From Chloroflexota bacterium (GTDB lineage Bacteria > Chloroflexota > Anaerolineae > B4-G1), in NCBI GenBank assembly GCA_024232355.1, contig JAAEPW010000617.1, positions 1 through 35,451 on the forward strand: a stretch of DNA of 35,451 bases, in the 5' to 3' direction. The translations under genes were made by a program, and so were the position numbers. Below, piece after piece: positions 823-20,838 of the stretch (positions within the stretch are counted from its first letter, which is position 1; each line of letters begins with the position of its first letter). The notes under the pieces were generated by a model that was not told the origin of the DNA, did not search any database, and was given only the letters and a program-made list of their open reading frames with translations.

Positions 823-846
823 GAGTGGCTTTATCGTCAATCATCA
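813..846. terminator. Hairpin made of two convergent stop regions
   Basis: TGATGATTGA (813-822) and its perfect complement TCAATCATCA (837-846) flank a 14-base loop. The first arm ends the rightward gene and the second arm ends the leftward gene; both proteins end Asp-Asp-stop, so coding sequence itself builds the stem. It probably acts as a bidirectional transcription barrier. There is no long U-tract after the hairpin, so efficient intrinsic termination is uncertain. Confidence 0.5.
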
Positions 847-1913
847 GGCGTGGAACGCCGGTTAAAGACCCACACGCCGATAGCCGGAATGGGCGCTACA
901 AGCCCCAACAGCAGGCCAAACACCAGCATCAGGCCGCCCACAGGCGGTAGGAGTAGTGCCAGCAGCCCCCCTAAAACGAACAACATCGCGGCTATAGCGC
1001 CAAGGACTAATGAAGTGACGTTTGCCTTGCGCGTCGAAGCCCGCCGGACCCCGCTCACGTGCCCGCTTTGCCCATTGATAAGCACCGGCCAGATGCGTTC
1101 TCCCTCTCGATACCATGTGACGTAGGCGGGCAGCAAGAGTTGCGTCCAGTTCAGATTGCCGTATTCTACCTCTGGCCTCAAGTCGCGGATGTGATCGGCC
1201 CCGGCGGCTTGGCGGCACTCGGCTCCGGCTGCGTGGTTGAAAGCTGCTTTTACTCCATCCCAAGCTGCTTCCGGCTCCAGCGTGGGAATACGGATGGTTC
1301 CAGTGGTTATTGTTTGAGGTGCGTAATTGGTGCGTTGCCCCAAGTCGAAATCGCCCAGACGGTTCATCAACGCACGATGATCGTCTAGGGCAGGCGCGGC
1401 TACATTCTCATAACTCCGGCTGATCCGGCCCACGCGCGGTTCCCAACGAATCCGACCCTCTTTCACCTCTTGCGAACTCCAACCTTGCCCGTCACGGTAC
1501 CTATCTTGGTAACTGACGGCTTGATAGTCAAAACCCACGTCTGCCCGCCACGCGCCCTCAACCTGGCCATCCACCAGCCAGAGCGGGACAAAATAATGCC
1601 GCGCTCGCCGCATCAACACCTCGGCCTTGAATTCGTCGGGGCGGAACCGGACGCCTTGCGTCCACTGTTCCAGCATCCGGGCCAGTTTTTGCTTTGAGAT
1701 AGTGTGGGGCAGGATCTGCTCGGGTGGTTCCTCACGCAGATAGGCTGGTTGCGGCGCGACCGGTCCCTGGAGACAAAATGGGCAGCGTGATGGGATCGCG
1801 TCCTCCGGCACCAGGTGTGCTTCTCCACACCGAGCGCAATGTACCGCTGCCAACTCTACGCCCCAAACCGCTGCCACATCCGTCGCTTCTAGTTCTTCTC
1901 TTGCTTTCTGCAT
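837..1913 (-). CDS. Zinc-ribbon membrane protein B (paralogue of the gene upstream)
   Basis: This is a 358-residue protein with one N-terminal zinc ribbon (Cys26, Cys29, Cys44, Cys47; CARC and CPFC), a long central soluble region, and two C-terminal hydrophobic segments at about 297-350. The start at 1913 is chosen because GGAGG lies eight bases upstream and the ATG follows the upstream stop by four bases; a longer in-frame start would overlap the upstream gene. The middle region shares blocks with the upstream paralogue, such as PVLINGQSGHVSG here versus VMVNGQTGNVAG there. The layout (ribbon, soluble core, C-terminal anchors) resembles TFIIB-type zinc-ribbon membrane proteins such as Bacillus YdjG, which recruits partner proteins to the membrane. 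That similarity is from memory and unverified. It is translationally coupled to the 1918-3213 gene. Confidence 0.75.
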   Translation of the reverse strand: MQKAREELEATDVAAVWGVELAAVHCARCGEAHLVPEDAIPSRCPFCLQGPVAPQPAYLREEPPEQILPHTISKQKLARMLEQWTQGVRFRPDEFKAEVLMRRARHYFVPLWLVDGQVEGAWRADVGFDYQAVSYQDRYRDGQGWSSQEVKEGRIRWEPRVGRISRSYENVAAPALDDHRALMNRLGDFDLGQRTNYAPQTITTGTIRIPTLEPEAAWDGVKAAFNHAAGAECRQAAGADHIRDLRPEVEYGNLNWTQLLLPAYVTWYREGERIWPVLINGQSGHVSGVRRASTRKANVTSLVLGAIAAMLFVLGGLLALLLPPVGGLMLVFGLLLGLVAPIPAIGVWVFNRRSTPDD

Positions 1914-1917
1914 CTTG

Positions 1918-3213
1918 TTATGCCTCCTCCGACGCCCGCGCTTTTTGAAAGATGACGATTCCCCCAATTAACGCCGCCACCAACAGGATTCCGCCGATCA
2001 CCAATCCGATTCCCCCAACTCCTCCTAGGGGAAGCGTCAACAGCCCCAATAGCCCCAAGCATGCGCCCGGAGAGAGCATCGCTGCGATGGCCAGCCAGAC
2101 CCGTACCCAAGCGACAGGCTTTTGCCCAGCCACGTTGCCCGTCTGTCCGTTGACCATCACCTGGAACGTGCGGTCATCAAAGGGATAGGATGCCAGGTAG
2201 ACCGGCAGGAGGATATACCGCCATCGTTCGTCGGCAAAGTCTGCCGTCATCCGAAAGTTGCGCACGTGAGATGATCCGGTGTCTTGGTAGCAAGCGCTCT
2301 TGGCTTGCGCCCGCATCTCTTCTTTGGCGATCTTCCACCCATCTTGCAACTGGACGTCGTACCCTTTGGCTTGCCAACCGGCCAGGTAACTGGATTCGTA
2401 CTCGGTTAACCCATTCAGGTTAAAGGGCGTTACTTTGCCCATTATGACGCGGCTGACGTGCGTCGTGCCCACCACCAAGTGATCGTCTACCGGGACGCGC
2501 ACTCGTCCAGATCGCCAATTCCAGTCAATGACGGTGCGTGTCTTCCACTCTCCGTCCTGGCGATAGCGTTCGGTTCTCTCGGTGCCGACCTCGGCCTTCC
2601 AGTCGGCGTGGATGTCGGCGTCAAAGGTCCAAAAGGGAAGATAGACGCCCGTCAACTCTTGCAGTGCTCGCACGCCGCGAAGTTCGGGTGGGTGCATCCA
2701 GCCCCTACCCAGCCATTCGACCACCAACCCGCGCAGGCGGTCCTTGTCCACGGCAAAGGGGACCAGAGCGGTGGGCCGGAGCAAGTCACCGGTGACGTCG
2801 CGGGCGTGGACGCGGTTCGAGCCGCAAAAGGCGCACGAACTCGTCAGCACATCGGGCTCAACGGCGACGGCCGCACCGCATGCCTCGCACGCCAGTTCCC
2901 GCCGTTCCTCGCCCCAGCCATACCGCGCGCGCTCCATCGTCTCTAGCGTGAACTCGAACTCGGCCGCAGTCCGCCCTACCTCCTCGGCGGCCACTTTTTG
3001 CGAGCCGCCGCAGTAAGGGCAGGCCAGTTGTTGCTCGGTGGCACTATAAGAGATCGTGCCGCCGCAATGGCGACACTTGAAGGTACGCGTCTCCTCTTGT
3101 GGCTTTTCTTCGGGAGCGGGCGCATAGATCTCGATGCCGTCTACCAGCGAGGGCACGAGGATGAAACCTTTGGGAGGCGGCCATAGTTTACTCGGTTGGC
3201 TAGTAGTGTTCAT
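1918..3213 (-). CDS. Zinc-ribbon membrane protein A (two ribbons)
   Basis: This 431-residue protein carries two N-terminal zinc ribbons: Cys47/50 with Cys65/68 (CRHCGG, CPYCGG), and Cys109/112 with Cys127/130 (CEACGA, CAFCGS). A soluble beta-rich core follows, and two hydrophobic segments occupy about residues 375-425, so it is probably anchored with the ribbons in the cytoplasm. AGGAG lies about eight bases before the ATG. It is first in a two-gene operon with its paralogue and is divergent from the Ser/Thr kinase gene at 3434, with a face-to-face promoter between them. Automated annotation sometimes mislabels such proteins as primosomal or replication factors because of the ribbons; there is no helicase motif here. 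It may be an adaptor for the neighbouring kinase system (inference). Confidence 0.75.
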   Translation of the reverse strand: MNTTSQPSKLWPPPKGFILVPSLVDGIEIYAPAPEEKPQEETRTFKCRHCGGTISYSATEQQLACPYCGGSQKVAAEEVGRTAAEFEFTLETMERARYGWGEERRELACEACGAAVAVEPDVLTSSCAFCGSNRVHARDVTGDLLRPTALVPFAVDKDRLRGLVVEWLGRGWMHPPELRGVRALQELTGVYLPFWTFDADIHADWKAEVGTERTERYRQDGEWKTRTVIDWNWRSGRVRVPVDDHLVVGTTHVSRVIMGKVTPFNLNGLTEYESSYLAGWQAKGYDVQLQDGWKIAKEEMRAQAKSACYQDTGSSHVRNFRMTADFADERWRYILLPVYLASYPFDDRTFQVMVNGQTGNVAGQKPVAWVRVWLAIAAMLSPGACLGLLGLLTLPLGGVGGIGLVIGGILLVAALIGGIVIFQKARASEEA

Positions 3214-3260
3214 TGGATGGCTCCTATCAAGTCTTGTGTTTTGCGCTGCACATCTTGTAT

Positions 3261-3289
3261 ATTTTACGTGATGCTGTCTGTAAGGTCAA
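3261..3289 (-). promoter_or_regulatory. Promoter for the zinc-ribbon operon (divergent block, copy 1)
   Basis: Read on the minus strand, the -35 is TTGACC (3284-3289) and the -10 is TAAAAT (3261-3266), with exactly 17 bases between. It drives the operon starting at 3213. The -35 lies inside a block, starting GATGCTGTC and ending AAGGTCAA, that is shared with the region before the second kinase (9584-9603). Confidence 0.55.
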
Positions 3290-3296
3290 GCGCGTG

Positions 3297-3325
3297 TTGC
3301 GCGGGCGGTAAATTTGTGTTACACT
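3297..3325 (+). promoter_or_regulatory. Promoter for Ser/Thr kinase 1 (divergent block, copy 1)
   Basis: The -35 is TTGCGC (3297-3302) and the -10 is TACACT (3320-3325), with a 17-base spacer and a TG two bases before the -10. The predicted start site is near 3332, giving a leader of about 100 bases before the ATG at 3434. The same architecture recurs at 9612-9640 before the second kinase. Confidence 0.6.
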
Positions 3326-3433
3326 TGCTGTAGGTTGGATTTGTCCATCCAATTGGACGCTTCCTGGCAAAACCATCTACGAAGGATAGCAAAACCCAAG
3401 TCACAACAAAAGATTTCCTCAAAGGACAATACA

Positions 3434-5071
3434 ATGTCAGAATCCACGCAACTTGGCAAGTACAAAATCCTCAAAAAGGTTGGGCGCGGCGGCTTTGCTA
3501 CTGTATACAAGGCCCGTGATACAACTCTGAACCGTATCATTGCTCTCAAAATCCTTCACCCCCATATCGCTGAAGATGATGTCTTTATCAAACGCTTCTA
3601 CCAAGAGGCCAGTATCGCTGCCAATTTACGACACTCTAATATCGTCATCGTTCACGAAGTAGGTGAACGAGACGGACAACATTATTTGGCGATGAGCTTT
3701 CTGCCCGGCCAAACTCTGGAGGCTCTGTTGGCTGCTGCTCAACAACCATTGCCGCTAGAGCAAATCGCCGCAATCGTGGAGCAGCTTGCCAATGCCCTTG
3801 ATTACATTCATAATCGTGGTCTCATACATCGCGACGTTAAACCAAGCAACATCATCATAGATGACGCTGGTCAGGCCACCCTTCTTGATTTCGGCATCGT
3901 CCGCGCTGCCGATGGCACGCAAGTGACCACCACCGGCACCATAATAGGCACTCCCCAGTACATGTCGCCGGAGCAAGCTGAAGGCGAAAAGGTGGATGCC
4001 CGTTCAGACATCTACTCGCTCGGTGTCGTCGCCTACCGGATGTGCACCGGACAACCCCCTTTTAATGATGTCTCTTCTCTCGTTGTCCTCCGCCTCCATG
4101 CAGATAAACTGCCCCCGTCGCCTCATGAGATCAACCCCCAATTGCCGGTTGATGTTGGACGAGTGCTTCTCAAGGCCCTGGCCAAAAAACGGGATGAACG
4201 CTATCAGACTGCTGGAGAACTGGCCCGAGCATTGAAACAAGCTGGGAAATTCGGAACTGATGTACAACTGGATCGTTCATCACAGCCTGCAATTTGGATT
4301 CGGGTTGTGATCGGCGTGTTGGCAATAATACTACTACTGGCCTTGGGCAAGTTTGCACTCGATTTGATTAGCGTGGAGGATCTGACGCCAACGCCAACCT
4401 TGACAGCCACAGTGGCACTGGTGCCAACAGACACTCCCATGGTGGTCATACCGCCGACTGAGACACTGCCACCTGCTACACCTACACCAACTGACATACC
4501 TGCACCGACCAGTACCCCAACACCTACACTCGTGCCGGATAACACAGCCATCAGCCTTCAGAGCGCTAGCATCTTTGTCTCACCGGATGCGAATTCAACA
4601 GTGCTTGGTGGGATTAGAGTGGGGGAGCAAGTTGAAATATTGGGACGTTCTTCCTATGGTGATTGGTTCTACGTCAGTTACCAGAATGTAGAGGGCTTTG
4701 CATATGCTCCTCGCTTTGAGTGGTCGGGAGATTACGAGTCACTGATCATCGTCTCGTCGCCTTCACCGGTTACCCTCACCCCTACTTCCACGATTCCATA
4801 CTCTACCTTGACGATGGATCTTTGGGATATTCCAGGGAGTATCGGATGTTCCAATGGTGCATGGTACAAGTCTGTCTATATCAATGGAAAAGGTGGTGAT
4901 GATGTCTATACTTACTATTGGAACGGTGAAATAGTAGCCGGGCCGACTAGCGAAGACTACTCCTTCCAGGTGAGTAATCCAGATGGGCCAATCATTGGTA
5001 TCGGTAAGGTGGTCTCTGGTGATGGACAAGAGGTCGAGATGCAAATCCACATTGCAGGAACCGATTGCTAG
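3434..5071 (+). CDS. Membrane Ser/Thr protein kinase with SH3-like ectodomain (kinase 1)
   Basis: This is a 545-residue Hanks-type kinase. The start at 3434 is supported by AAGGA eight bases upstream; a longer in-frame start lacks a ribosome site. The kinase domain spans about 9-270: glycine loop GRGGFATVY, Lys39, C-helix Glu58, HRD 132-134 followed by VKPSN, DFG 152-154, and MSPEQ for the APE motif, so it should be catalytically active. A transmembrane helix lies at about 287-310, then a Thr/Pro-rich linker. A bacterial SH3-like domain follows at about 415-475 (ISLQSASIFVSPDANS to WFYVSYQ), then a beta-rich domain of about 90 residues with paired Cys that I do not recognise. The kinase faces the cytoplasm and the sensor faces outward, where SH3-like domains often bind cell wall. 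It heads the island that includes the CHAT protein. Confidence 0.93.
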   Translation: MSESTQLGKYKILKKVGRGGFATVYKARDTTLNRIIALKILHPHIAEDDVFIKRFYQEASIAANLRHSNIVIVHEVGERDGQHYLAMSFLPGQTLEALLAAAQQPLPLEQIAAIVEQLANALDYIHNRGLIHRDVKPSNIIIDDAGQATLLDFGIVRAADGTQVTTTGTIIGTPQYMSPEQAEGEKVDARSDIYSLGVVAYRMCTGQPPFNDVSSLVVLRLHADKLPPSPHEINPQLPVDVGRVLLKALAKKRDERYQTAGELARALKQAGKFGTDVQLDRSSQPAIWIRVVIGVLAIILLLALGKFALDLISVEDLTPTPTLTATVALVPTDTPMVVIPPTETLPPATPTPTDIPAPTSTPTPTLVPDNTAISLQSASIFVSPDANSTVLGGIRVGEQVEILGRSSYGDWFYVSYQNVEGFAYAPRFEWSGDYESLIIVSSPSPVTLTPTSTIPYSTLTMDLWDIPGSIGCSNGAWYKSVYINGKGGDDVYTYYWNGEIVAGPTSEDYSFQVSNPDGPIIGIGKVVSGDGQEVEMQIHIAGTDC

Positions 5072-5093
5072 CCCAAGGGATCGTTTAAAAATG

Positions 5094-5137
5094 ACTTTGT
5101 ACTTTTCGATTCGTTTTCTACCTAACAAGTACAAAGT
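5094..5137. terminator. Long-loop hairpin after kinase 1
   Basis: ACTTTGTACTT (5094-5104) pairs perfectly with AAGTACAAAGT (5127-5137) over an 11-bp stem with a 22-base loop. It begins 22 bases after the kinase stop codon. No clean U-tract follows, so it may stabilise or process the kinase transcript rather than terminate it. Confidence 0.4.
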
Positions 5138-5193
5138 TGTCTCTGAACAACGCCCAAACTGTCGGGAGCATTTCACAGAACAATGACGAGTTT

Positions 5194-5238
5194 GTAGTAG
5201 GCGCTTTAGCGCCATTTTACGTTACTAAAGACGACTAC
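5194..5238. repeat. REPIN-like repeat, copy 2
   Basis: It starts with GTAG and ends with CTAC. Hairpin 1 is GGCGC-TTTA-GCGCC (5200-5213). The second half (5220-5233) has only a three-base-pair stem, but its loop contains CTAAAG, the complement of CTTTAG in the first half, so it looks like a decayed inverted unit. It lies between kinase 1 and the CHAT gene. Confidence 0.55.
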
Positions 5239-5278
5239 TGCCAAGAAACAGCTTGTTGAAAAAGGCCCAAAAATCCGC

Positions 5279-7873
5279 ATGAACAACGATACTCAAAACT
5301 CTATCCCAACTCCAATTTGGTCCGCATCATTAGCGTTGCCCCCTGCCATTCCACCTTTGCTCGCGGGTAATTTGCTGCTGGTCGCTACACAGGATACTGG
5401 CTCATCCGACCATCCGGCTGTGCTTTACGCCCTCGACCTGCGCGATGGCAGCATTTCTTGGTCGCAAACCTTTGAATATGGAATGATCAGTGGGTTGGCA
5501 GTCACCGCCGACGGTCATATCTTGGTTGCTATCACCAGTACCAATATGATCCACGGTCAGGGCGCGCTCGTGTTTCTGGATACGACGGGACAGGAACGCA
5601 ACCGCTGGTCCCCTGGCATACAGCGTGTCTCTGCCCCAGTTGTGCGTAAAGGCATAGCATGCTTCACCGCAGATGCCCATACCTTGGTCGTCGTCGATTC
5701 TGCTACTTGCCAGGAACAGGTTCGTATTTCTTTGGAGACTACTGCCTCTCTGTCTGCCCCTGCTTTGTCTGGCCGAGTTGCATACGTTCCCTGCCATAGT
5801 CCCCATGTTCTGGCGGTGGACCTTGATGAGAAGAGCGTCAGGCCCTTGAAGGTGCAGGATGCCTCTGACGCTTGGCTCGACAAAACTCCCGTCTTGCTTG
5901 GAGAGAACCTCTTTACTGTGCTTAGTACTGGCGCACTCCTGGCCCTGCGGACCGGCAACGGTTCGCAGATGTGGCGCACCAATGTAGGGCCAGCAGGTAG
6001 GTCTCTCAGCACCCCCACAACCGATGGTGTCCACCTATACGTCGGTGCCCGCAACGGCCTGCACGCCCTCACCCTGGCAGACGGCGGCGAGGCGTGGTTC
6101 TTTCCGACGTCTCGCAGGATCGAGGCTGCGCCCGTCGTGTCTGGAGGCGTGGTCTATGCTGCTTGCTGTGATCATTTCATCTATGCCATCGATGCGGTCA
6201 CTGGGCGGGAACTGTGGCGATACGAACTCGGACGGCGGCGGATCGAGGTCACACCAGTCTTGGCGGCTTGTGATGAAACACCCTGTCTGCTCGCCATAGA
6301 TCGGGATGGTACCTTGACCGCCATCGCCCGTCCCCTCAGTGCTCAAGAGCACAAGGATGCTGGTCATTGGGTCAAAGCTGCATCCGCCTACGTCGCTCTA
6401 GGTCATCCCGCTCGCGGTGCCCAACTTTTGGAGGATCATGGTGAGCCGATCAATGCTGCCCAACTGTGGCAGATTGCGGGAGAACCGGAGCGTGCGGCCC
6501 AACAGTATGAGGTAGCCGGAGCCTGGCGGCAGGCCGCCGACCTATGGGCTACCTTGGACCAACCACTCAAATGGGCTGAGGCTTTGAAAGCCCACGCCCG
6601 CGTGTTGGAAGAAACCACGTGCAGCGCAGACGAATGTGCCAAGGTTTGGGGTATCGCTGCTCAAGCCTTTGAGGCTGGAGGAAATATAGAGCGCGCCACT
6701 GCTTGCAGGCAAGAGTTGACCCGCTGTCTTGAATTACCCATCATCACTGTTGACGTCCAACTAGACAAAGGATTGGTACTGGATGCTTGGTCGCTTTTGC
6801 GCTTTATCATCCGCAATCAGGGCTATGGGCCGGCCCGCAGCCTCATTATTCGCGCCACTGGCGATCAGTTCGAGGGGCAAGTGATGGCAACGCGCCAGAT
6901 CGCCGGGCTGAAAGCCGGTCTCGACCGTACGGATGTGTTCAACATCCGCCCCCGCGAGCATGGCGACAGCGTTCCGCTTCAGGTGATCGTAGAGTATGTT
7001 GATCAGAGCGGCACCACCCGTACTTGTAAACAGACCATCCACATCGCCGTTTCCCGCACCAAAGCAGCACGTGGCGCGGGAAAGGTTGTCAATGTATTTG
7101 TGTCTGGCAGTGGCGCGGCTGTGGTGGGTGATGGTGCGGTGGTTACTGGCGCTGGCGGCGTGGCCGTGGGCGGAGATGCAGGAGGAGATATTGCGATTGG
7201 GCAGACAGACGGCGTACACGGTCCAAGCTCCTCGGAGAGTGTTCAAGAGCCCGTTACGACACGTGGAGGGCAAATGATCAAAATTCTATTTCTAGCCGCC
7301 AACCCTACAGACACCACTCAACTGCGACTGGATGCGGAAATTCGAGCCATAGACCAGGCTCTGCGCCAGGCCGAATTCCGAGATCACTTTGATATCAAGC
7401 AGCATTGGGCCGTGCACGTGGGCGATATCCAAGAACTCTTTTTGCGTCACCAGCCCCACATCGTCCACTTTAGTGGTCACGGCAGCCCGTCCAGCGAAAT
7501 CATTCTGGAAGACAATGCCGGTGATAGCTACATTGTCCCAGCAAAAGCGCTCAATGATCTCTTCTCTGTGCTCAAGGACAACATCCGCTGTGTCGTGCTC
7601 AATGCCTGTTTTTCGGAACAACAAGCCGCTGCCATCGCTCAGCACATTGACTGTGTCGTTGGAATGTCCAGGGCCATTGGAGATGACTCTGCTATCAGTT
7701 TTGCCACTGCCTTTTACCGTGCCCTGGGCTACGGGCGTAATGTCGAGACAGCCTTCAAACTGGGTTGCTTGGAAATCAACCTAGAAAACCTGGATGAACA
7801 AGATACCCCGCAATTATTGACCGTCAAAGCTGATCCAGTTAAAATTCAGTTCGTGCACAAAGCTAAAAACTAG
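5279..7873 (+). CDS. Beta-propeller / TPR-like / CHAT caspase-like protein
   Basis: This 864-residue soluble protein has four parts. Residues 1-350 are PQQ-type propeller blades (repeats such as VLYALDLRDGSISW, LHALTLADGGEAW, IYAIDAVTGRELW). Residues 355-485 are alpha-helical TPR- or clathrin-like repeats rich in Ala and Trp. Residues 487-600 look like a CARDB/APHP-type beta-sandwich. After a Gly/Ala/Val-rich VGDG stretch (607-645), the C-terminus (about 666-864) is a CHAT domain, a clan-CD caspase-like protease fold. The catalytic dyad is visible: His734 in HFSGHG and Cys777 in LNACFS. CHAT proteases act in bacterial conflict and cell-death signalling, usually after a sensor domain detects a trigger. 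The only close start is the ATG at 5279, with just a weak distant AAGG. Kinase 1 upstream and a membrane peptidase downstream suggest a signalling cascade (inference). Confidence 0.88.
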   Translation: MNNDTQNSIPTPIWSASLALPPAIPPLLAGNLLLVATQDTGSSDHPAVLYALDLRDGSISWSQTFEYGMISGLAVTADGHILVAITSTNMIHGQGALVFLDTTGQERNRWSPGIQRVSAPVVRKGIACFTADAHTLVVVDSATCQEQVRISLETTASLSAPALSGRVAYVPCHSPHVLAVDLDEKSVRPLKVQDASDAWLDKTPVLLGENLFTVLSTGALLALRTGNGSQMWRTNVGPAGRSLSTPTTDGVHLYVGARNGLHALTLADGGEAWFFPTSRRIEAAPVVSGGVVYAACCDHFIYAIDAVTGRELWRYELGRRRIEVTPVLAACDETPCLLAIDRDGTLTAIARPLSAQEHKDAGHWVKAASAYVALGHPARGAQLLEDHGEPINAAQLWQIAGEPERAAQQYEVAGAWRQAADLWATLDQPLKWAEALKAHARVLEETTCSADECAKVWGIAAQAFEAGGNIERATACRQELTRCLELPIITVDVQLDKGLVLDAWSLLRFIIRNQGYGPARSLIIRATGDQFEGQVMATRQIAGLKAGLDRTDVFNIRPREHGDSVPLQVIVEYVDQSGTTRTCKQTIHIAVSRTKAARGAGKVVNVFVSGSGAAVVGDGAVVTGAGGVAVGGDAGGDIAIGQTDGVHGPSSSESVQEPVTTRGGQMIKILFLAANPTDTTQLRLDAEIRAIDQALRQAEFRDHFDIKQHWAVHVGDIQELFLRHQPHIVHFSGHGSPSSEIILEDNAGDSYIVPAKALNDLFSVLKDNIRCVVLNACFSEQQAAAIAQHIDCVVGMSRAIGDDSAISFATAFYRALGYGRNVETAFKLGCLEINLENLDEQDTPQLLTVKADPVKIQFVHKAKN
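7265..7276 (+). promoter_or_regulatory. Internal ribosome site and ATG before the CHAT domain
   Basis: GGAGGG (7265-7270) sits three bases before an in-frame ATG at 7274, exactly where the CHAT domain begins (MIKILFLAANPT). Internal initiation would give a free 199-residue CHAT protease. The spacing is shorter than ideal, so this is a candidate only. Confidence 0.35.
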
Positions 7874-7943
7874 CAAGATTTGTGCATGTGTTCAGGCTCA
7901 GTCGAAGGATTCGTGGTGCTAAAAGTTCAAGAAAGATGGGATT

Positions 7944-9383
7944 GTGAAAAAACTTGAGCGGATCAGCAAATACCAAACCCTCGACAAACTTGGCTGTGCT
8001 CTAGACCAGGCTGTTGAGACAGAGACTCACAAGCAGTTGCCCGAGCCGATACTGGCTCGAGTGTGGCTGGTAGGTACTCTTTGTGGTCTGGTAGTATTCA
8101 TCATCCTGAGCAAGCTGGCCTTGAGCGACAGCGTGACATCGATCGTGTCCATGTCAACTGCTCCACTAGTTCCCACAATCATAGGGTCAATCGTGCCTGT
8201 AATAACGCCGACCTCAACGCCCACGCCCAACACACCAACTCTTGTCGCCAAAGATGAGAACATTATCCACACAGTTGCTTTTGGTCAGACGCTAGAGGAT
8301 ATCGCTGTCCATTATGGTACAAGTGTCAAAGCTATCAAATCAGCAAATAGTTTGACTTTTGACTTTGTCCAACAGGGAAATACACTCGTAATCCCTTTGG
8401 GAGGATCTGTCACCGACTCACAAATAACTGAAACCACCAGTCAAACCTGGCAGTTCTCAGTCATTGAAGGTGATCTGAAGGCTAGCTATCCATTAGCCGT
8501 ACGTATGGATCGATTTACACTATATCACCAGCCCAGCTATTTGACTGACAGGAACCTTGGCCTGGTGTTAAAGATGGTGTCGACTGCTCTATCTCATATC
8601 GAGAATACACTCGACGTTCATTTGGATGGTCGGTTTAATGCCTATGCAGCCGGTTCTCTCTTTAGGCCGCCAGATCTGGCGTTGCGAGGGCGCAGTTTTT
8701 CATCCCAGCGTCGTTTCTTTTTCTTGCATGATGGAACAGGCTCTCTGGTCGATCAACAGTACAACTTGACTCACGAACTTGCGCATGTGATGACCTGGAA
8801 TACTATGGGAGAGCCTTCTTCCGTAATGCTACATGAGGGGGTAGCCGTCTATTTGGGGATCGAGTTAGTCAAGGATGCGGGTTACCTTCCTCTTGACTCG
8901 TTCTGTGCTGCGCATCACAGCGCAGGACAACTTTCCCGTGTGTCAACTGATCTCTCATTCAAAGGTCATATAAGAGACTTGGATAATTATTACGCAGCAG
9001 GGTGTTTTGTGCAGTTTCTGATCGAGAAATATAGGGTAGAGAATTTTGCCTCAATTTACCATACGGGAGATTACTATGGTGTCTATGGAAAAAGCCTGGC
9101 CGATTTGGAGGCAGAGTGGATTGCAAATATTGAGGCTGCCGATTATGCTATTCCTTTTGACATTGACGAGTTTGTATATTACGTGGACCAAGTTTCCGTG
9201 GCCTATGGTCGATTATTTAGTAGCTTTGATGGCACTGAGAACCAAATAGTCGCCTATCAAGAATTGGATCGAGCACGGATGGCTTTCTTGCAAGGGCGTT
9301 TGAATGAGGTGGCTTGCCATCTCTTGAAGTTTGAGAGTATCCTTAATCAGAAACTGGATCGGCCCGACGATATTTCTCGATAG
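7944..9383 (+). CDS. Membrane LysM metallopeptidase with kinase-like N-terminal stub
   Basis: This 479-residue protein starts at GTG 7944 with a poor ribosome site. A transmembrane helix at about 39-60 is followed by a Thr/Pro linker and a LysM domain (about 107-151: HTVAFGQTLEDIAVHYGTS), which normally binds peptidoglycan or related glycans. The outer domain is a gluzincin (peptidase-MA-like): HELAH at 277-281 gives two zinc ligands and the catalytic Glu, and LHEGVA with Glu298 is the likely third ligand. Its first residues, ISKYQTLDKLG, match the beginning of a Hanks kinase domain (kinase 1 has LGKYKILKKVG), after which the sequence diverges and runs into the membrane helix. It may therefore descend from a membrane kinase whose catalytic domain was deleted. 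Its last codons abut a NUDIX relic. Substrate unknown. Confidence 0.85.
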   Translation: MKKLERISKYQTLDKLGCALDQAVETETHKQLPEPILARVWLVGTLCGLVVFIILSKLALSDSVTSIVSMSTAPLVPTIIGSIVPVITPTSTPTPNTPTLVAKDENIIHTVAFGQTLEDIAVHYGTSVKAIKSANSLTFDFVQQGNTLVIPLGGSVTDSQITETTSQTWQFSVIEGDLKASYPLAVRMDRFTLYHQPSYLTDRNLGLVLKMVSTALSHIENTLDVHLDGRFNAYAAGSLFRPPDLALRGRSFSSQRRFFFLHDGTGSLVDQQYNLTHELAHVMTWNTMGEPSSVMLHEGVAVYLGIELVKDAGYLPLDSFCAAHHSAGQLSRVSTDLSFKGHIRDLDNYYAAGCFVQFLIEKYRVENFASIYHTGDYYGVYGKSLADLEAEWIANIEAADYAIPFDIDEFVYYVDQVSVAYGRLFSSFDGTENQIVAYQELDRARMAFLQGRLNEVACHLLKFESILNQKLDRPDDISR

Positions 9384-9508
9384 ATGTGAGGCCTATTACC
9401 CGGAATTCAGGCACAGATCGCGATGATTCCGATCCAGCATATCCTCGAATCCCCTCCCAGCGCCAAGTCTCGGCAGGCAAGGGCTTGCTGCTGTTGTATT
9501 CAATTTGA
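9384..9508 (+). pseudogene. Decayed 5' fragment of a NUDIX hydrolase gene
   Basis: Translated from 9384, the fragment reads GLLPGIQAQIAMIPI and then SAKSRQA. It aligns with GPLPGIQAQITMAPI and AKSRQA at the start of the intact NUDIX gene (11949-12554). It has a stop at its second codon and a one-base deletion after SRQA; restoring that base continues as LLLLYSI and then a stop. A 23-base stretch is identical between the copies (9397-9419 and 11989-12011). The fragment begins immediately after the peptidase stop codon. It is a relic of duplication or recombination around kinase 2. Confidence 0.8.
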
Positions 9509-9574
9509 ACTGATAGGCAATGTTCATAGGGTATCCTATCGTGCTGCACACATTACGTTTTGCGTATCACGTCA

Positions 9575-9640
9575 ATATTGCGCGATGCTGTCAGAAAGGT
9601 CAAATGCTGTGTTGCACGAGTCGCCAATTTGTGCTACACT
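9575..9640. promoter_or_regulatory. Promoter block before kinase 2 (divergent block, copy 2)
   Basis: On the plus strand, the -35 is TTGCAC (9612-9617) and the -10 is TACACT (9635-9640), 17 bases apart with an upstream TG. On the minus strand, TTGACC (9598-9603) and a weaker CAATAT (9575-9580) are also 17 bases apart. The motif GATGCTGTC...AAGGTCAA (9584-9603) matches 3270-3289 at 18 of 20 positions. Here no divergent gene remains on the left, so the minus-strand promoter appears vestigial. About 110 bases of 9641-9750 hold nothing else recognisable. Confidence 0.6.
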
Positions 9641-9815
9641 ATTTGCCACTTGATTATGGTAGGGCATTGGCTTCTCGCATCATAACTACAGAACAGTTTC
9701 ACTCCATCTTACAAACTCATTGACATATTAGATTGAAAACAACCACATATTTACAGGTCAAGGGCTTGCCAGATAATGGTTGTCGGTAGGCATACCTTGA
9801 TTTAGGAGTAATGCG

Positions 9816-11744
9816 ATGACTTTGACCGTAGGAGAAATACTTCAGAACCGGTATCGTATCGTTTCTCCTCTTGGCCAAGGAGGAATGGGCGCTGTTTACC
9901 AGGCTTGGCATCTCAGTCTCAATTTGCCGATCGCCATCAAGGAGATGATGCCCCAGCCTGATCTTGATGCCCAAGTGTTGGCTCAACTTCGCCAACAGTT
10001 TCAGCACGAGGCTGCCACCTTGGCCCGCTTGGATCATCCCCACCTGGTCGCCGTCATAGATTTCTTTGAAGAAGGAGACAATGCTTATCTGGTGATGCAC
10101 CTGGTGGAAGGGGAGAGCCTGGCAGATCGCATTGAACGGGACAGTGCGTTGTCTGAAGATCAGGTGCTAGTTTGGGCCGACCAGTTGTTAGATGCTTTGG
10201 AATACTGTCATAACCAAGGAGTCATTCATCGGGACATCAAACCCCAGAACGTGATCATTCGTTCTGATGAACGGGCAATACTGGTGGACTTTGGATTGGT
10301 AAAGTTGTGGGATCCTAGTGATCCACGAACAAAGACAGTGGTGCGGGGATTGGGCACGCCCGAGTACGCACCACCAGAGCAGTATAGTGTTCATCGGAGC
10401 CACACTGACCCACGCAGCGATCTATACAGTCTGGGTGCCACCCTGTACCACGCACTGGTTGGCTATGCGCCGATGACAGCCACTGACCGGATGGCAACTC
10501 CCGACCAATTTGAACCGGTACGTGATTTGAACCCCCGGGTGAGTGCTGGAACTGAAACTGCGATACTAAAGGCGATGGAGTTGCCACTTGTCAATCGTTT
10601 CAAGAATGCAGCCGAAATGAAGACATCATTGGGCATCGGTGTGCCTACCCCAACCCTATTCACAAAGCAGTCGACGAAAGTGATGCCGAGCGCGCGAGTG
10701 ACTACCTCACCTCGGTCCAGGCGTGTGCCCGTGTGGGTTTGGATTACGAGTGGGATAATAGCGTTCGTACTGCTGATTTATCTGGTCAAGTTCGGATTTG
10801 GATGGAAAAGTGCGGACGAGCTAATAGCTACACTATTTCCTACCGTCACATCCACAGTTGTGCCAACGTCAACTCGAACATTTACACCCACGCCCACAGC
10901 CACACCGACCCGAGCACCAACACTGGGTGATACTCGGACCCGTCCCACTGATGGCATGGTGATGGTCTATGTCCCCAGCGGCACATTCCAGATGGGCAGC
11001 ATCGATGCTGAGATTGATGCTGCATTCTCTTTGTGCGAACAGGATCTTGGAAGTGGCGAATGTGAGCAAAACTGGTACATTGATGAGTCTCCTCAACACC
11101 TCGTTACCCTCGATGCCTTTTGGATAGATCGGGCCGAGGTCAGCAATATCCAATATCGCCAGTGTGTGGAGGCGGGAGAGTGTGATGCGCCAACGACATG
11201 TGATTGGGGAGACCTGACTTTTAGTGATGCGGCGAAGGATGATCATCCAGTAGTTTGTGTGAATTGGCATGAGGCGGACGCATACTGCCAGTGGGCAGGC
11301 GCGCAGTTGCCGACAGAGGCCCAATGGGAGTATGCAGCGAAAGGAACACAAGGGTATGTTTATCCCTGGGGAAACACCTTTGACGGTGCGCGAGTGAACT
11401 TTTGTGATGCCAACTGCACCTATGATTGGAAAACGAACGAATATGATGATGGGTACGAAAGGACATCGCCAGTAGCGAGTTTCCCAAATGGTTCCAGTTG
11501 GTGCGATGCTATGAATATGGCGGGTAACGTCTGGGAATGGACCACTGATTGGTACGGTGATTACTTTTCCGGGGCGCAGATAAATCCCACTGGCCCAACA
11601 GAAAGAGATCGCAAGGTGCTGCGCGGGGGCGGCTGGGTCGTAAGGCAGACGGATGTCCGCGCATCCTACCGCGGCAGCCATCCCACTGAATTTCGTAGCC
11701 CTAGTCTTGGGCTGCGGTGTGTGGATGACGTGCTGGGACAGTGA
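9816..11744 (+). CDS. Membrane Ser/Thr kinase with FGE-like ectodomain (kinase 2)
   Basis: This 642-residue protein starts at ATG 9816, eight bases after AGGAG. The kinase domain (about 13-275) has QGGMGAVYQ, Lys42, Glu65, HRD 138-140 with IKPQN, DFG 158-160 and APPEQ, so it should be active. A transmembrane helix lies at about 305-326, then a Thr/Pro linker. Residues 380-637 form a formylglycine-generating-enzyme/sulfatase-modifying domain (VYVPSGTFQMGS, LPTEAQWEYAAKG, AGNVWEWTTDWY, VLRGGGW, LGLRCV). The two copper-binding cysteines of true FGE, expected after RGG, are Val609 and Val614 here, so sulfatase activation is unlikely. The domain probably serves as an extracytoplasmic ligand-binding or scaffold fold. 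Extra cysteine pairs suggest disulfides. It shares its promoter block with kinase 1. Confidence 0.93.
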   Translation: MTLTVGEILQNRYRIVSPLGQGGMGAVYQAWHLSLNLPIAIKEMMPQPDLDAQVLAQLRQQFQHEAATLARLDHPHLVAVIDFFEEGDNAYLVMHLVEGESLADRIERDSALSEDQVLVWADQLLDALEYCHNQGVIHRDIKPQNVIIRSDERAILVDFGLVKLWDPSDPRTKTVVRGLGTPEYAPPEQYSVHRSHTDPRSDLYSLGATLYHALVGYAPMTATDRMATPDQFEPVRDLNPRVSAGTETAILKAMELPLVNRFKNAAEMKTSLGIGVPTPTLFTKQSTKVMPSARVTTSPRSRRVPVWVWITSGIIAFVLLIYLVKFGFGWKSADELIATLFPTVTSTVVPTSTRTFTPTPTATPTRAPTLGDTRTRPTDGMVMVYVPSGTFQMGSIDAEIDAAFSLCEQDLGSGECEQNWYIDESPQHLVTLDAFWIDRAEVSNIQYRQCVEAGECDAPTTCDWGDLTFSDAAKDDHPVVCVNWHEADAYCQWAGAQLPTEAQWEYAAKGTQGYVYPWGNTFDGARVNFCDANCTYDWKTNEYDDGYERTSPVASFPNGSSWCDAMNMAGNVWEWTTDWYGDYFSGAQINPTGPTERDRKVLRGGGWVVRQTDVRASYRGSHPTEFRSPSLGLRCVDDVLGQ

Positions 11745-19443: not shown

Positions 19444-20838
19444 ATGTCCGCAAATAACGAACTGATTCAAGCCCTACGAACTGCCCTTGAGGCATCCCCT
19501 GAGGCCGTACCCCTGCGCAAGCACCTGGCCGACCTGCTGATGGAGGCCGGTGAGTTTGATGAGGCTGCTAAAATCTATCGCCAGACCCTCGACCTAGCGC
19601 CTGAGGACGACGGGATCAGGCTGTTGCTGGCTGAAGCGTATTACCGGCAGGGTGAAAAAGACGTCGCCATAGTCGTTCTGGAGCGGCTGATCGGTGGTCC
19701 TGCTCCCACGGCCCATGCGTTTTTGCTCGCGGCCCGCGTTTACGTAGAGACCGGCGAAATAGCCAAGGCCGCACAAGCCTATAAACAGGCCATTGCCCAA
19801 GATCCGGACCTAGCAGACCCCGATTTGCAGCGTCAATTGGCCGTCACCGGGATAGAAGCGCCGCCACGAGATGGGGCAGAGCCAGAGTCGGAAAAGGACG
19901 AACTTGTGTTCGTCGTCGCTGACGAGTCACCGGCGGATGATCTCATCGAACGTCCGCGCATCACCTTTGAAGATGTGGGCGGGATGGACAAGCTTAAGGA
20001 AGAAATCAGGATGAAGATCATCTACCCGCTCACGCATCCCGAAATCTACGAGGCTTATGGCAAAACCATCGGCGGCGGCATCTTGATGTACGGCCCGCCA
20101 GGGTGCGGCAAGACCTATCTGGCCCAAGCAACCGCTGGCGAGGTAAAGGCGCATTTCGTGTCGGTGGGGTTGCACGACGTGCTCGACATGTATATTGGGG
20201 AGAGTGAGCGCAAGCTGCACGAGATTTTCGAACTAGCCCGCAACCACACCCCGTGCGTGCTCTTCTTTGACGAGGTGGACGCTCTGGGCGCGAGCCGCTC
20301 TGATATGCGGTACAGTTCGGGCCGCAAGCTCATCAACCAGTTCTTGGCCGAGCTGGATGGCGTGGACACGTCAAACGAAGGTGTCTTGATCCTGGCCGCG
20401 ACGAATGCTCCATGGCACGTCGACCAGGCCATGCGGCGACCGGGCCGCTTTGACCGCGTCCTGTTCGTGCCTCCGCCCGATGCGGCGGCTCGTGGGGCCA
20501 TCCTCCGTATTCAATTGGAAAACAAGCCAACGGGCAAGGTCGACTATCAGAAACTGGGGCGGCAGGCGGATGGCTTTTCTGGCGCGGATTTGAAAGGCGT
20601 CATCGATATGGCCGTGGAGCGCAAACTGCGCGAGGCGATGCAGACCGGCGTTCCCAAGCCACTGACCACCAAGGACCTTCAAACGGTGATCAAGATCGTG
20701 CATCCCACGATCAAAGAATGGTTCGCCACCGCGCGCAATTACGCCATCTATTCCAACCAGGGTGGCATCTATGATGATATTCTGGACTATATGAAGATTT
20801 CTCGCGGTCCCAAGTTGTCTTCCGGACGGTCTCGCTGA
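19444..20838 (+). CDS. TPR-AAA+ ATPase (CDC48/Msp1-like single AAA domain)
   Basis: This 464-residue soluble ATPase starts at ATG 19444 after AAGGAG. Residues 5-120 are about three TPR-like helical repeats for protein binding. Residues 174-420 are one AAA+ module: Walker A GPPGCGKT (217-224), pore loop around MYIGESE (249-255), Walker B FFDEVDA (Asp276, Glu277), sensor-1 AATNAP and the arginine-finger segment RRPGRFDR. The region is most like classical AAA unfoldases (Cdc48, Msp1, FtsH) rather than MoxR. A remodelling role, extracting or disassembling targets picked by the TPRs, is inferred. A TPR membrane protein follows after 11 bases and is the obvious partner. Confidence 0.92.
   Translation: MSANNELIQALRTALEASPEAVPLRKHLADLLMEAGEFDEAAKIYRQTLDLAPEDDGIRLLLAEAYYRQGEKDVAIVVLERLIGGPAPTAHAFLLAARVYVETGEIAKAAQAYKQAIAQDPDLADPDLQRQLAVTGIEAPPRDGAEPESEKDELVFVVADESPADDLIERPRITFEDVGGMDKLKEEIRMKIIYPLTHPEIYEAYGKTIGGGILMYGPPGCGKTYLAQATAGEVKAHFVSVGLHDVLDMYIGESERKLHEIFELARNHTPCVLFFDEVDALGASRSDMRYSSGRKLINQFLAELDGVDTSNEGVLILAATNAPWHVDQAMRRPGRFDRVLFVPPPDAAARGAILRIQLENKPTGKVDYQKLGRQADGFSGADLKGVIDMAVERKLREAMQTGVPKPLTTKDLQTVIKIVHPTIKEWFATARNYAIYSNQGGIYDDILDYMKISRGPKLSSGRSR

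What the first reader, a model, noticed from the sequence alone, without database searches (positions are those of the whole stretch)
3214..11744. Kinase / CHAT-protease / LysM-metallopeptidase / FGE-kinase island
Four consecutive same-strand genes encode two membrane Ser/Thr kinases with different outer sensor domains, a beta-propeller-TPR-CHAT caspase-like protein with its His734/Cys777 dyad, and a membrane metallopeptidase. A divergent zinc-ribbon membrane pair shares the promoter region. CHAT, FGE-like and kinase domains recur in predicted bacterial conflict and cell-death systems; the Gly-rich VGDG linker before CHAT is also typical of such effectors. This exact set is not one I know. One model: envelope stress is sensed outside, relayed by phosphorylation, and triggers CHAT proteolysis.
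Basis: partly seen in the sequence, partly recalled or inferred. Interest (0 to 1): 0.78.

Follow-up and report, generated by a model that had tools for sequence, protein, structure and literature searches.

The report
Kinase-linked adaptor with swappable death domain
In this Chloroflexota-like bacterium a membrane kinase gene sits beside a gene for a scaffold protein that ends in a caspase-like protease; in relatives the same scaffold carries other killing or recruiting domains and again usually lies next to a kinase, which suggests a kinase-controlled, plug-in cell-suicide or defence switch.

Summary
The four genes are real, and the His734/Cys777 dyad is kept in 36 of 36 aligned CHAT sequences (window included). 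The "island" is not one conserved set of four. Its conserved core is kinase 1 plus the CHAT protein. Residues 1-600 of the CHAT protein (8-bladed propeller, helical repeats, beta-sandwich) form a scaffold that recurs with interchangeable tails: Mrr nuclease, CHAT, caspase, bDLD1-TIR, SIR2-like, EAD7, EAD8. In Anaerolineae genomes the scaffold gene lies beside a same-strand Ser/Thr kinase in 12 of 16 loci (13 of 17 with the window); about 0.17 of 16 is expected by chance, before allowing for relatedness. Kinase 1, ten such neighbours and a kinase-scaffold fusion form one clade. Kinase 1's outer domain also caps kinase-caspase fusions. In one relative the neighbouring kinases carry FGE domains diversified by a diversity-generating retroelement (25 of 26 mismatches at template adenines). 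Kinase 2-FGE, the LysM peptidase and the zinc-ribbon pair are not conserved partners. Best reading: a receptor kinase gates a plug-in effector scaffold, an NTPase-free variant of EAD-type conflict systems. Phosphorylation, proteolysis and any phage or stress trigger are inferred, not shown.

The parts
3434..5071 (+). Kinase 1 (K1): Hanks-type Ser/Thr kinase, one TM segment, outer SH3b domain plus C-terminal beta-rich domain; the conserved partner
   Evidence: Pfam Pkinase 2.4e-50, SH3_3 1.6e-7; HRDVKPSN, DFG present; TM by hydropathy; kinase clade of 12; outer domain shared with kinase-caspase fusions
5200..5213 (+). terminator-like hairpin between K1 and the CHAT gene (weak; pattern match only)
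   Evidence: 20 such sites found in the region against a mean of 8.2 in shuffles
5279..7873 (+). Scaffold-CHAT protein, 864 aa
5312..6328 (+). 8-bladed PQQ-type beta-propeller (residues 12-350)
6341..6730 (+). helical TPR-like repeats (residues 355-484)
   Evidence: model; weak sequence match to IFT144, E 0.0016
6743..7054 (+). beta-sandwich (residues 489-592)
   Evidence: model secondary structure; many near-invariant columns in the 48-sequence alignment; fold not tested separately
7109..7273 (+). Gly-rich then Ser/Thr-rich linker (residues 611-665), predicted disordered; scaffold/effector joint
   Evidence: pLDDT below 50; shared with scaffold proteins carrying other tails
7277..7783 (+). 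CHAT domain (about residues 667-835)
   Evidence: Pfam PF12770; PADLOC chat; SAVED-CHAT 8tl0 E 7.9e-16; poorly modelled here
7478..7480 (+). codon of catalytic-type His734
7607..7609 (+). codon of catalytic-type Cys777
7944..9383 (+). membrane LysM + HExxH peptidase-like protein; not a conserved partner
   Evidence: Pfam LysM; 116 of 120 listed family members (window included) have HExxH, PF13485 precomputed in some
9816..11744 (+). Kinase 2: Ser/Thr kinase, TM, outer FGE (C-type-lectin-fold) domain; different kinase lineage, membership unproven
   Evidence: Pfam; tree
1918..3213 (-). zinc-ribbon-like membrane protein, not conserved with the scaffold
837..1967 (-). second zinc-ribbon-like membrane protein, homologous to the first

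Best explanation
Kinase 1 (3434-5071) and the scaffold-CHAT protein (5279-7873) form a two-gene receptor-kinase/effector module. K1 senses a cue with its outer SH3b and beta domains (in relatives, often with an FGE lectin-type domain) and phosphorylates the cytoplasmic propeller/helical-repeat/beta-sandwich scaffold or its Ser/Thr-rich linker. That releases or clusters the C-terminal effector, here a CHAT caspase-like protease, whose cleavage of cellular proteins kills or arrests the cell. The scaffold is a plug-in hub: relatives keep it and exchange the tail for an Mrr nuclease, SIR2-like, caspase or bDLD1-TIR part, or for an EAD7 or EAD8 adaptor that would recruit effectors in trans. Shown: the domains, the tail exchange, the conserved neighbourhood with one main kinase lineage, the kinase-scaffold fusion, the kinase-caspase fusions with K1's outer domain, and DGR diversification of the partner kinases' FGE domain in one relative. 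Inferred: phosphorylation, activation, proteolysis, death, and the trigger.
For: Tail exchange: of 91 scaffold proteins (window included) 27 carry Mrr, 23 EAD7-like, 10 CHAT, 6 SIR2-like, 2 caspase and 1 bDLD1-TIR tails, the rest coiled-coil, other or none (Pfam/PADLOC support on examples). Neighbourhood: 12 of 16 relatives' loci have an adjacent same-strand kinase; at 5-65 kinases per genome about 0.17 is expected. By 50%-identity scaffold clusters, window included, it is 6 of 8. Lineage: K1, ten kinases of the relatives' loci and the kinase of fusion P0036 form one clade of 12 without a background kinase (96/81). P0036 joins kinase and scaffold in one protein. K1's outer domain caps kinase-caspase proteins P0262-P0264. 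Dyad in 36 of 36. L001 DGR: 10 of 11 and 15 of 15 mismatches at template A; RT and Avd confirmed by Pfam.
Against: 4 of 16 relatives' loci lack an adjacent kinase: L028 and L029 (sister genomes, DsbH and GNAT genes upstream), L033 and L038 (EAD7 at the N-terminus, CHAT tail). More distant matches L123, L006, L007 and L008 also lack one immediately adjacent. Partner kinases are not one clade: those of L030, L031, L034, L049 and L050 form a second group. Kinase and scaffold distances correlate over 14 pairs (Mantel r 0.70, p 0.0001) but not significantly once close relatives are removed (9 pairs, r 0.28, p 0.13). A terminator-like hairpin lies in the 207-bp gap between K1 and the CHAT gene. The counted relatives come from two overlapping samples of one class and orders in it. 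No phospho-acceptor, protease substrate or phenotype is known. K1's outer domain is also found on AAA and TPR proteins, so it is not specific to death effectors.
Confidence: 0.6

Rival explanations
1. The scaffold-effector protein is an ordinary EAD-type conflict protein that acts with an NTPase or other partner elsewhere in the genome; the neighbouring kinase only regulates expression or is a passenger.
For: EAD7 occurs in 12 of 12 relatives' genomes examined, with 2 to 28 matches each; 4 of 16 loci have no adjacent kinase; Pfam found no STAND, MoxR or other NTPase in the island's proteins, so a partner could be remote.
Against: The kinase association (12 of 16 loci, one clade holding K1 and ten neighbours, one direct fusion) is far above background.
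Confidence: 0.2
2. The module is a developmental or envelope-homeostasis signalling pair; CHAT trims specific proteins and causes no death. (This overlaps with the best explanation in mechanism and differs in purpose.)
For: K1's outer region has an SH3b domain, often a wall-binding type (recalled); the window adds LysM and HExxH features; cyanobacterial STK-CLec proteins are read as regulatory tuning in PMC7517822 (passages).
Against: The alternative tails (Mrr nuclease, TIR, SIR2-like, EAD7, EAD8, bDLD1) are largely the kit of conflict systems in PMC7159879 and PMC8195603 (passages).
Confidence: 0.25
3. All four genes, with kinase 2-FGE and the LysM peptidase, form one envelope-sensing operon.
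For: Same strand, gaps of 207, 70 and 432 bases; FGE-kinases are partners of the scaffold in five other loci.
Against: Kinase 2 falls outside the partner kinase groups and sits with two background kinases; no LysM-peptidase gene flanks the scaffold in the relatives' loci (one partial LysM match about 6.7 kb away in L049).
Confidence: 0.1

Closest known systems
EAD-principle conflict systems (PMC7159879, 2020; PMC8195603, 2021; same group)
   Same: Exchangeable effectors (caspase-like proteases, TIR, nuclease-fold domains) and EAD7/EAD8/bDLD1 adaptors on a common core; FGE (FGS) domains and DGRs in some loci
   Different: The core there is an NTPase (MoxR-vWA, GTPase, STAND) or a proteolytic cascade; here it is an NTPase-free propeller/helical/beta-sandwich scaffold beside a Ser/Thr kinase. 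The window's own protein carries no EAD. Kinases appear there as effectors or as one theme of GAP1-N2 loci (passages).
DGR-diversified STK-CLec proteins of cyanobacteria (PMC7517822)
   Same: Ser/Thr kinase with a C-terminal C-type-lectin-fold domain diversified by a DGR, as in relative L001
   Different: The passages read name no downstream target. The window's K1 has SH3b and beta domains instead of FGE, and no template repeat for kinase 2-FGE was found in the window.
SAVED-CHAT (PDB 8tl0) and TPR-CHAT Csx29/Craspase (PMC9729208, PMC10028731)
   Same: CHAT caspase-like domain; 8tl0 aligns over 165 residues including the His and Cys
   Different: Those are CRISPR-linked with SAVED or gRAMP activation (partly recalled; abstract starts); no Cas or SAVED domain was found in the island's proteins.
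Kinases with anti-phage annotation (PD-T4-6, MAD6 models of PADLOC)
   Same: K1 and K2 score strongly against the kinase part
   Different: The same models also match P0036 and P0263 strongly, so the hits reflect the generic kinase domain
Kinase-caspase single proteins P0262-P0264 (found here)
   Same: Pkinase, caspase-like domain, then K1's SH3b/beta outer domain
   Different: One polypeptide with a C14 domain instead of a separate scaffold-CHAT; Ser in place of the catalytic Cys in P0262 and P0264

Membership tests
CHAT caspase-like protease | CHAT domain with His/Cys dyad | tested here: met
   Pfam over cut-off; dyad in 36 of 36 aligned sequences
CHAT caspase-like protease | proteolytic activity | not testable with these tools
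   needs biochemistry
EAD-type conflict system | common core with interchangeable effectors | tested here: met
   91 scaffold proteins with at least six tail types
EAD-type conflict system | EAD in the protein itself | tested here: not met
   none found by Pfam in the window protein; EAD7, EAD8 and bDLD1 in relatives
EAD-type conflict system | NTPase switch (MoxR-vWA, GAP1 or STAND) in the locus | tested here: not met
   no such domain in island proteins; nearest AAA gene found is 19444-20838; remote genes could not be seen
Hanks-type receptor Ser/Thr kinase | intact catalytic motifs and one TM segment | tested here: met
   ALK, HRDVKPSN, DFG in K1; AIK, HRDIKPQN, DFG in K2; TM by hydropathy
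DGR target (kinase 2-FGE) | template repeat and reverse transcriptase | tested here: inconclusive
   no second copy of the region in the window; whole genome not held
DGR target (relative L001 kinases) | TR/VR pairs with adenine-specific mismatches beside RT and Avd | tested here: met
   10 of 11 and 15 of 15 mismatches at A; RVT_1 E 8.6e-20, bAvd E 5.8e-16
Craspase / SAVED-CHAT | CRISPR or SAVED activation module | tested here: not met
   no SAVED or Cas domain in the island proteins by Pfam; remote genes not visible
PD-T4-6 anti-phage kinase | specific match, not generic kinase | tested here: inconclusive
   models hit all four kinases tried: K1, K2, P0036, P0263

The most novel reading that the evidence does not exclude
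This is a previously undescribed class of bacterial conflict or cell-death system in which a receptor Ser/Thr kinase, in some lineages with a hypermutating (DGR) lectin-type sensor, replaces the NTPase switch and gates a plug-in propeller scaffold loaded with one of many death effectors. It would supply the missing downstream target of DGR-diversified kinases.
Probability: 0.38. Interest if true: 0.85.

Novelty: new variant of a known kind. Interest (0 to 1): 0.62.

Why it matters
Known bacterial death and immunity hubs of this style are switched by NTPases or second messengers. A receptor-kinase-switched hub with exchangeable killers would resemble the logic of eukaryotic receptor-kinase and death-adaptor signalling. 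It would also give DGR-diversified kinases a concrete candidate substrate, so 'what do hypermutated kinases signal to?' becomes a two-gene experiment.

Tried and rejected
A direct genome scan with the CHAT protein gave no loci; the alignment A1 gave 8. I rejected 'CHAT genes sit by kinases': only 2 of the 12 kinase-linked relatives carry CHAT (L001, L036); the others carry Mrr (L002), EAD7 (L032 over Pfam's cut-off; L030, L031, L034, L049 below it), EAD8 (L050) or no recognised tail (L035, not scanned as a whole protein by Pfam; L039, L040). I rejected 'VGDG linker marks CHAT effectors'. I looked for a DGR template for kinase 2-FGE in the window and for template copies in L002, L032, L035, L036 and L039: none found beyond tandem-paralogue similarity in L002. 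CHAT was poorly modelled (pLDDT mostly under 50), because only 6 of 48 aligned proteins are full scaffold-CHAT proteins. IMG/VR gave one weak match, L122. One search repeated the genome set and added nothing. The structure list was filled by the propeller, so the helical and beta-sandwich parts are hardly tested by fold. My script label 'TIR_P7' proved wrong: Pfam puts P0007's TIR at residues 7-127, not in its tail; so the only TIR tail counted is P0082, while P0007 carries TIR at the N-terminus.

Rows dropped from the neighbour count: L045, L051, L037, L041, L042 (a neighbour missing or cut at a contig end). L004 (3.1-kb contig) was not in the count although its upstream same-strand gene is a kinase-FGE cut by the contig end. 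L006, L007, L008 and L123 were too weak or partial and are misses. Small ORFs (81 and 86 aa, opposite strand) between kinase and scaffold in L035 and L032 were read as spurious. L003, L043, L044 duplicate L035, L001, L002. Background kinases in the tree are 40 from the best-scoring listed places, not a random draw; one of them (L091) is the same gene as neighbour L001:17653. Most counts of tails use my own reference pieces, with Pfam or PADLOC checks on examples only; the coiled-coil and one short helical tail have no family support.

Papers: PMC7159879 abstract and passages; PMC8195603 passages; PMC10907252 passages; PMC7517822 passages; PMC3501461 passages; PMC9729208, PMC10028731 and PMC11417357 search listing with abstract start only. 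The statement that no description of this kinase-scaffold pair was found rests on the searches and 79 of the open-licence library only; supplements were not open to me.
Full report

A scaffold with exchangeable tails. A protein search found 163 proteins at E <= 0.001 (the window's own included), of which 120 were listed. Of the 120, 91 share the N-terminal scaffold. Their tails are: Mrr-type nuclease in 27, EAD7-like in 23, CHAT in 10, SIR2-like in 6, caspase in 2, bDLD1-TIR in 1; the rest have a coiled-coil piece, another short helical piece, a kinase at the N-terminus (P0036), or no recognised tail. Some proteins carry two. These labels come from matching my own reference pieces; Pfam confirmed Mrr_cat, EAD7, TIR, bDLD1, caspase and kinase on examples, and PADLOC gave a SIR2 model on P0021 (E 2.6e-7) but nothing on P0087, while Pfam gave no SIR2 on P0007 or P0021. 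The CHAT tail in turn is 65-78% identical to CHAT domains fused to unrelated domains, before or after them, while scaffold identity to the four non-CHAT relatives compared is 51-64%. The Gly-rich linker belongs to the scaffold: 24 of 91 scaffold proteins against 0 of 29 other CHAT proteins by a strict pattern (18 of the 29 have residues upstream of CHAT).

The kinase neighbour. The helical/beta-sandwich part was searched in whole genomes: matches in 16 of 396, 17 of 396, 5 of 48, 9 of 56 and 3 of 20 genomes at E <= 1e-20, and in 2 of 400 phylum-wide at 1e-10 (the sets overlap, and one search repeated one search's genomes). Loci were drawn by scaffold, not by kinase. Of 16 relatives' loci with both neighbours visible, 12 have an adjacent same-strand Ser/Thr kinase: L001, L002, L030, L031, L032, L034, L035, L036 (upstream), L039, L040 (downstream), L049, L050 (upstream). 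Five of these neighbours carry FGE (L001, L002, L032, L035, L036). The four without a kinase are L028, L029, L033 and L038. With 5-65 kinases per genome the expectation is 0.17 of 16; a simple model gives P about 1e-21, overstated because loci are related. By 50%-identity clusters, window included, it is 6 of 8. L004, left out of the count, has a kinase-FGE just upstream; L123, L006, L007 and L008, more distant, do not have one adjacent.

Main kinase lineage. In a tree of 60 kinase domains (40 background rows from the same genomes, 19 neighbour or fusion rows, one CHAT-fused kinase), kinase 1, the kinases in L001 (two), L002 (two), L032, L035, L036, L039, L040 (two), and that of fusion P0036 form a clade of 12 with no background row (96/81). 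The neighbours in L030, L031, L034, L049 and L050 form a second group with one background row, so the partners are not one clade. Kinase 2-FGE groups with two background kinases instead (100/99). Kinase and scaffold distances correlate over 14 pairs (r 0.70, p 0.0001) but not after removing close relatives (9 pairs, r 0.28, p 0.13), so strict co-inheritance is not shown.

Fusion evidence. Kinase 1's outer region (SH3b plus a C-terminal beta-rich domain) has 32 matches (itself included), among them P0262, P0263 and P0264: kinase, caspase-like domain, a hydrophobic stretch read by eye as TM, then SH3b. In P0263 the caspase Cys is present; in P0262 and P0264 it is Ser. The same outer domain also caps TPR and AAA proteins, so it is a general sensor cap.

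A hypermutated version. In L001 a reverse transcriptase (5541-6626; RVT_1 E 8.6e-20), an Avd gene (6623-6991; bAvd E 5.8e-16) and a template repeat (7039-7162) lie between two kinase-FGE genes, both in kinase 1's clade, directly upstream of a scaffold-CHAT gene. The two variable repeats (5283-5406, 9549-9672) differ from the template at 11 and 15 positions, 10 and 15 of them template adenines. One target has a predicted TM segment and one has none, so sensing could be inside or outside. The window itself shows no template for kinase 2-FGE.

What is not part of it. No LysM-peptidase or zinc-ribbon gene flanks the scaffold in the relatives' loci; L049 has one partial LysM match about 6.7 kb away. 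The LysM protein belongs to a common family, 116 of 120 listed members (window included) with HExxH.

Reading. The anatomy and context favour a receptor kinase that gates a plug-in effector scaffold; the tail set is largely that of EAD-type conflict systems (passages of PMC7159879 and PMC8195603), but without an NTPase seen in the locus. DGR-diversified kinase-CLec proteins are known in cyanobacteria, where the passages read propose phosphorylation cascades without naming a target (PMC7517822). I found no description of this pair in the open library. Phosphorylation, protease activity, cell death and the trigger remain to be tested.

Noticed in passing
L001:5283-9672: Complete diversity-generating retroelement (RT, Avd, template) with two kinase-FGE targets directly upstream of a scaffold-CHAT gene
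   Followed up: yes
L033:4641-11497 and L038:8220-15393: Scaffold variant with EAD7 at the N-terminus and CHAT tail, followed by a 1173/1252-aa gene (PF16158 in L033) instead of a kinase; possibly a sister system
   Followed up: partly
P0262, P0263, P0264: Single proteins joining kinase, caspase-like domain and kinase 1's outer domain; two have Ser in place of the catalytic Cys
   Followed up: partly
window:7944-8022: The LysM protein begins with a stretch (ISKYQTLDKLG) that looks like the start of a kinase domain, absent from the 10 homologues whose N-termini were printed; perhaps a remnant of a deleted kinase domain
   Followed up: no
L030:5843-6088: Stand-alone 81-aa EAD7-like ORF next to a scaffold gene whose own C-terminus matches EAD7 just below the cut-off
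   Followed up: no
L050:8766-10961: Kinase-linked scaffold with an EAD8 tail
   Followed up: no
window:19444-22163: AAA ATPase with TPRs followed by a TPR protein, about 8 kb downstream
   Followed up: no
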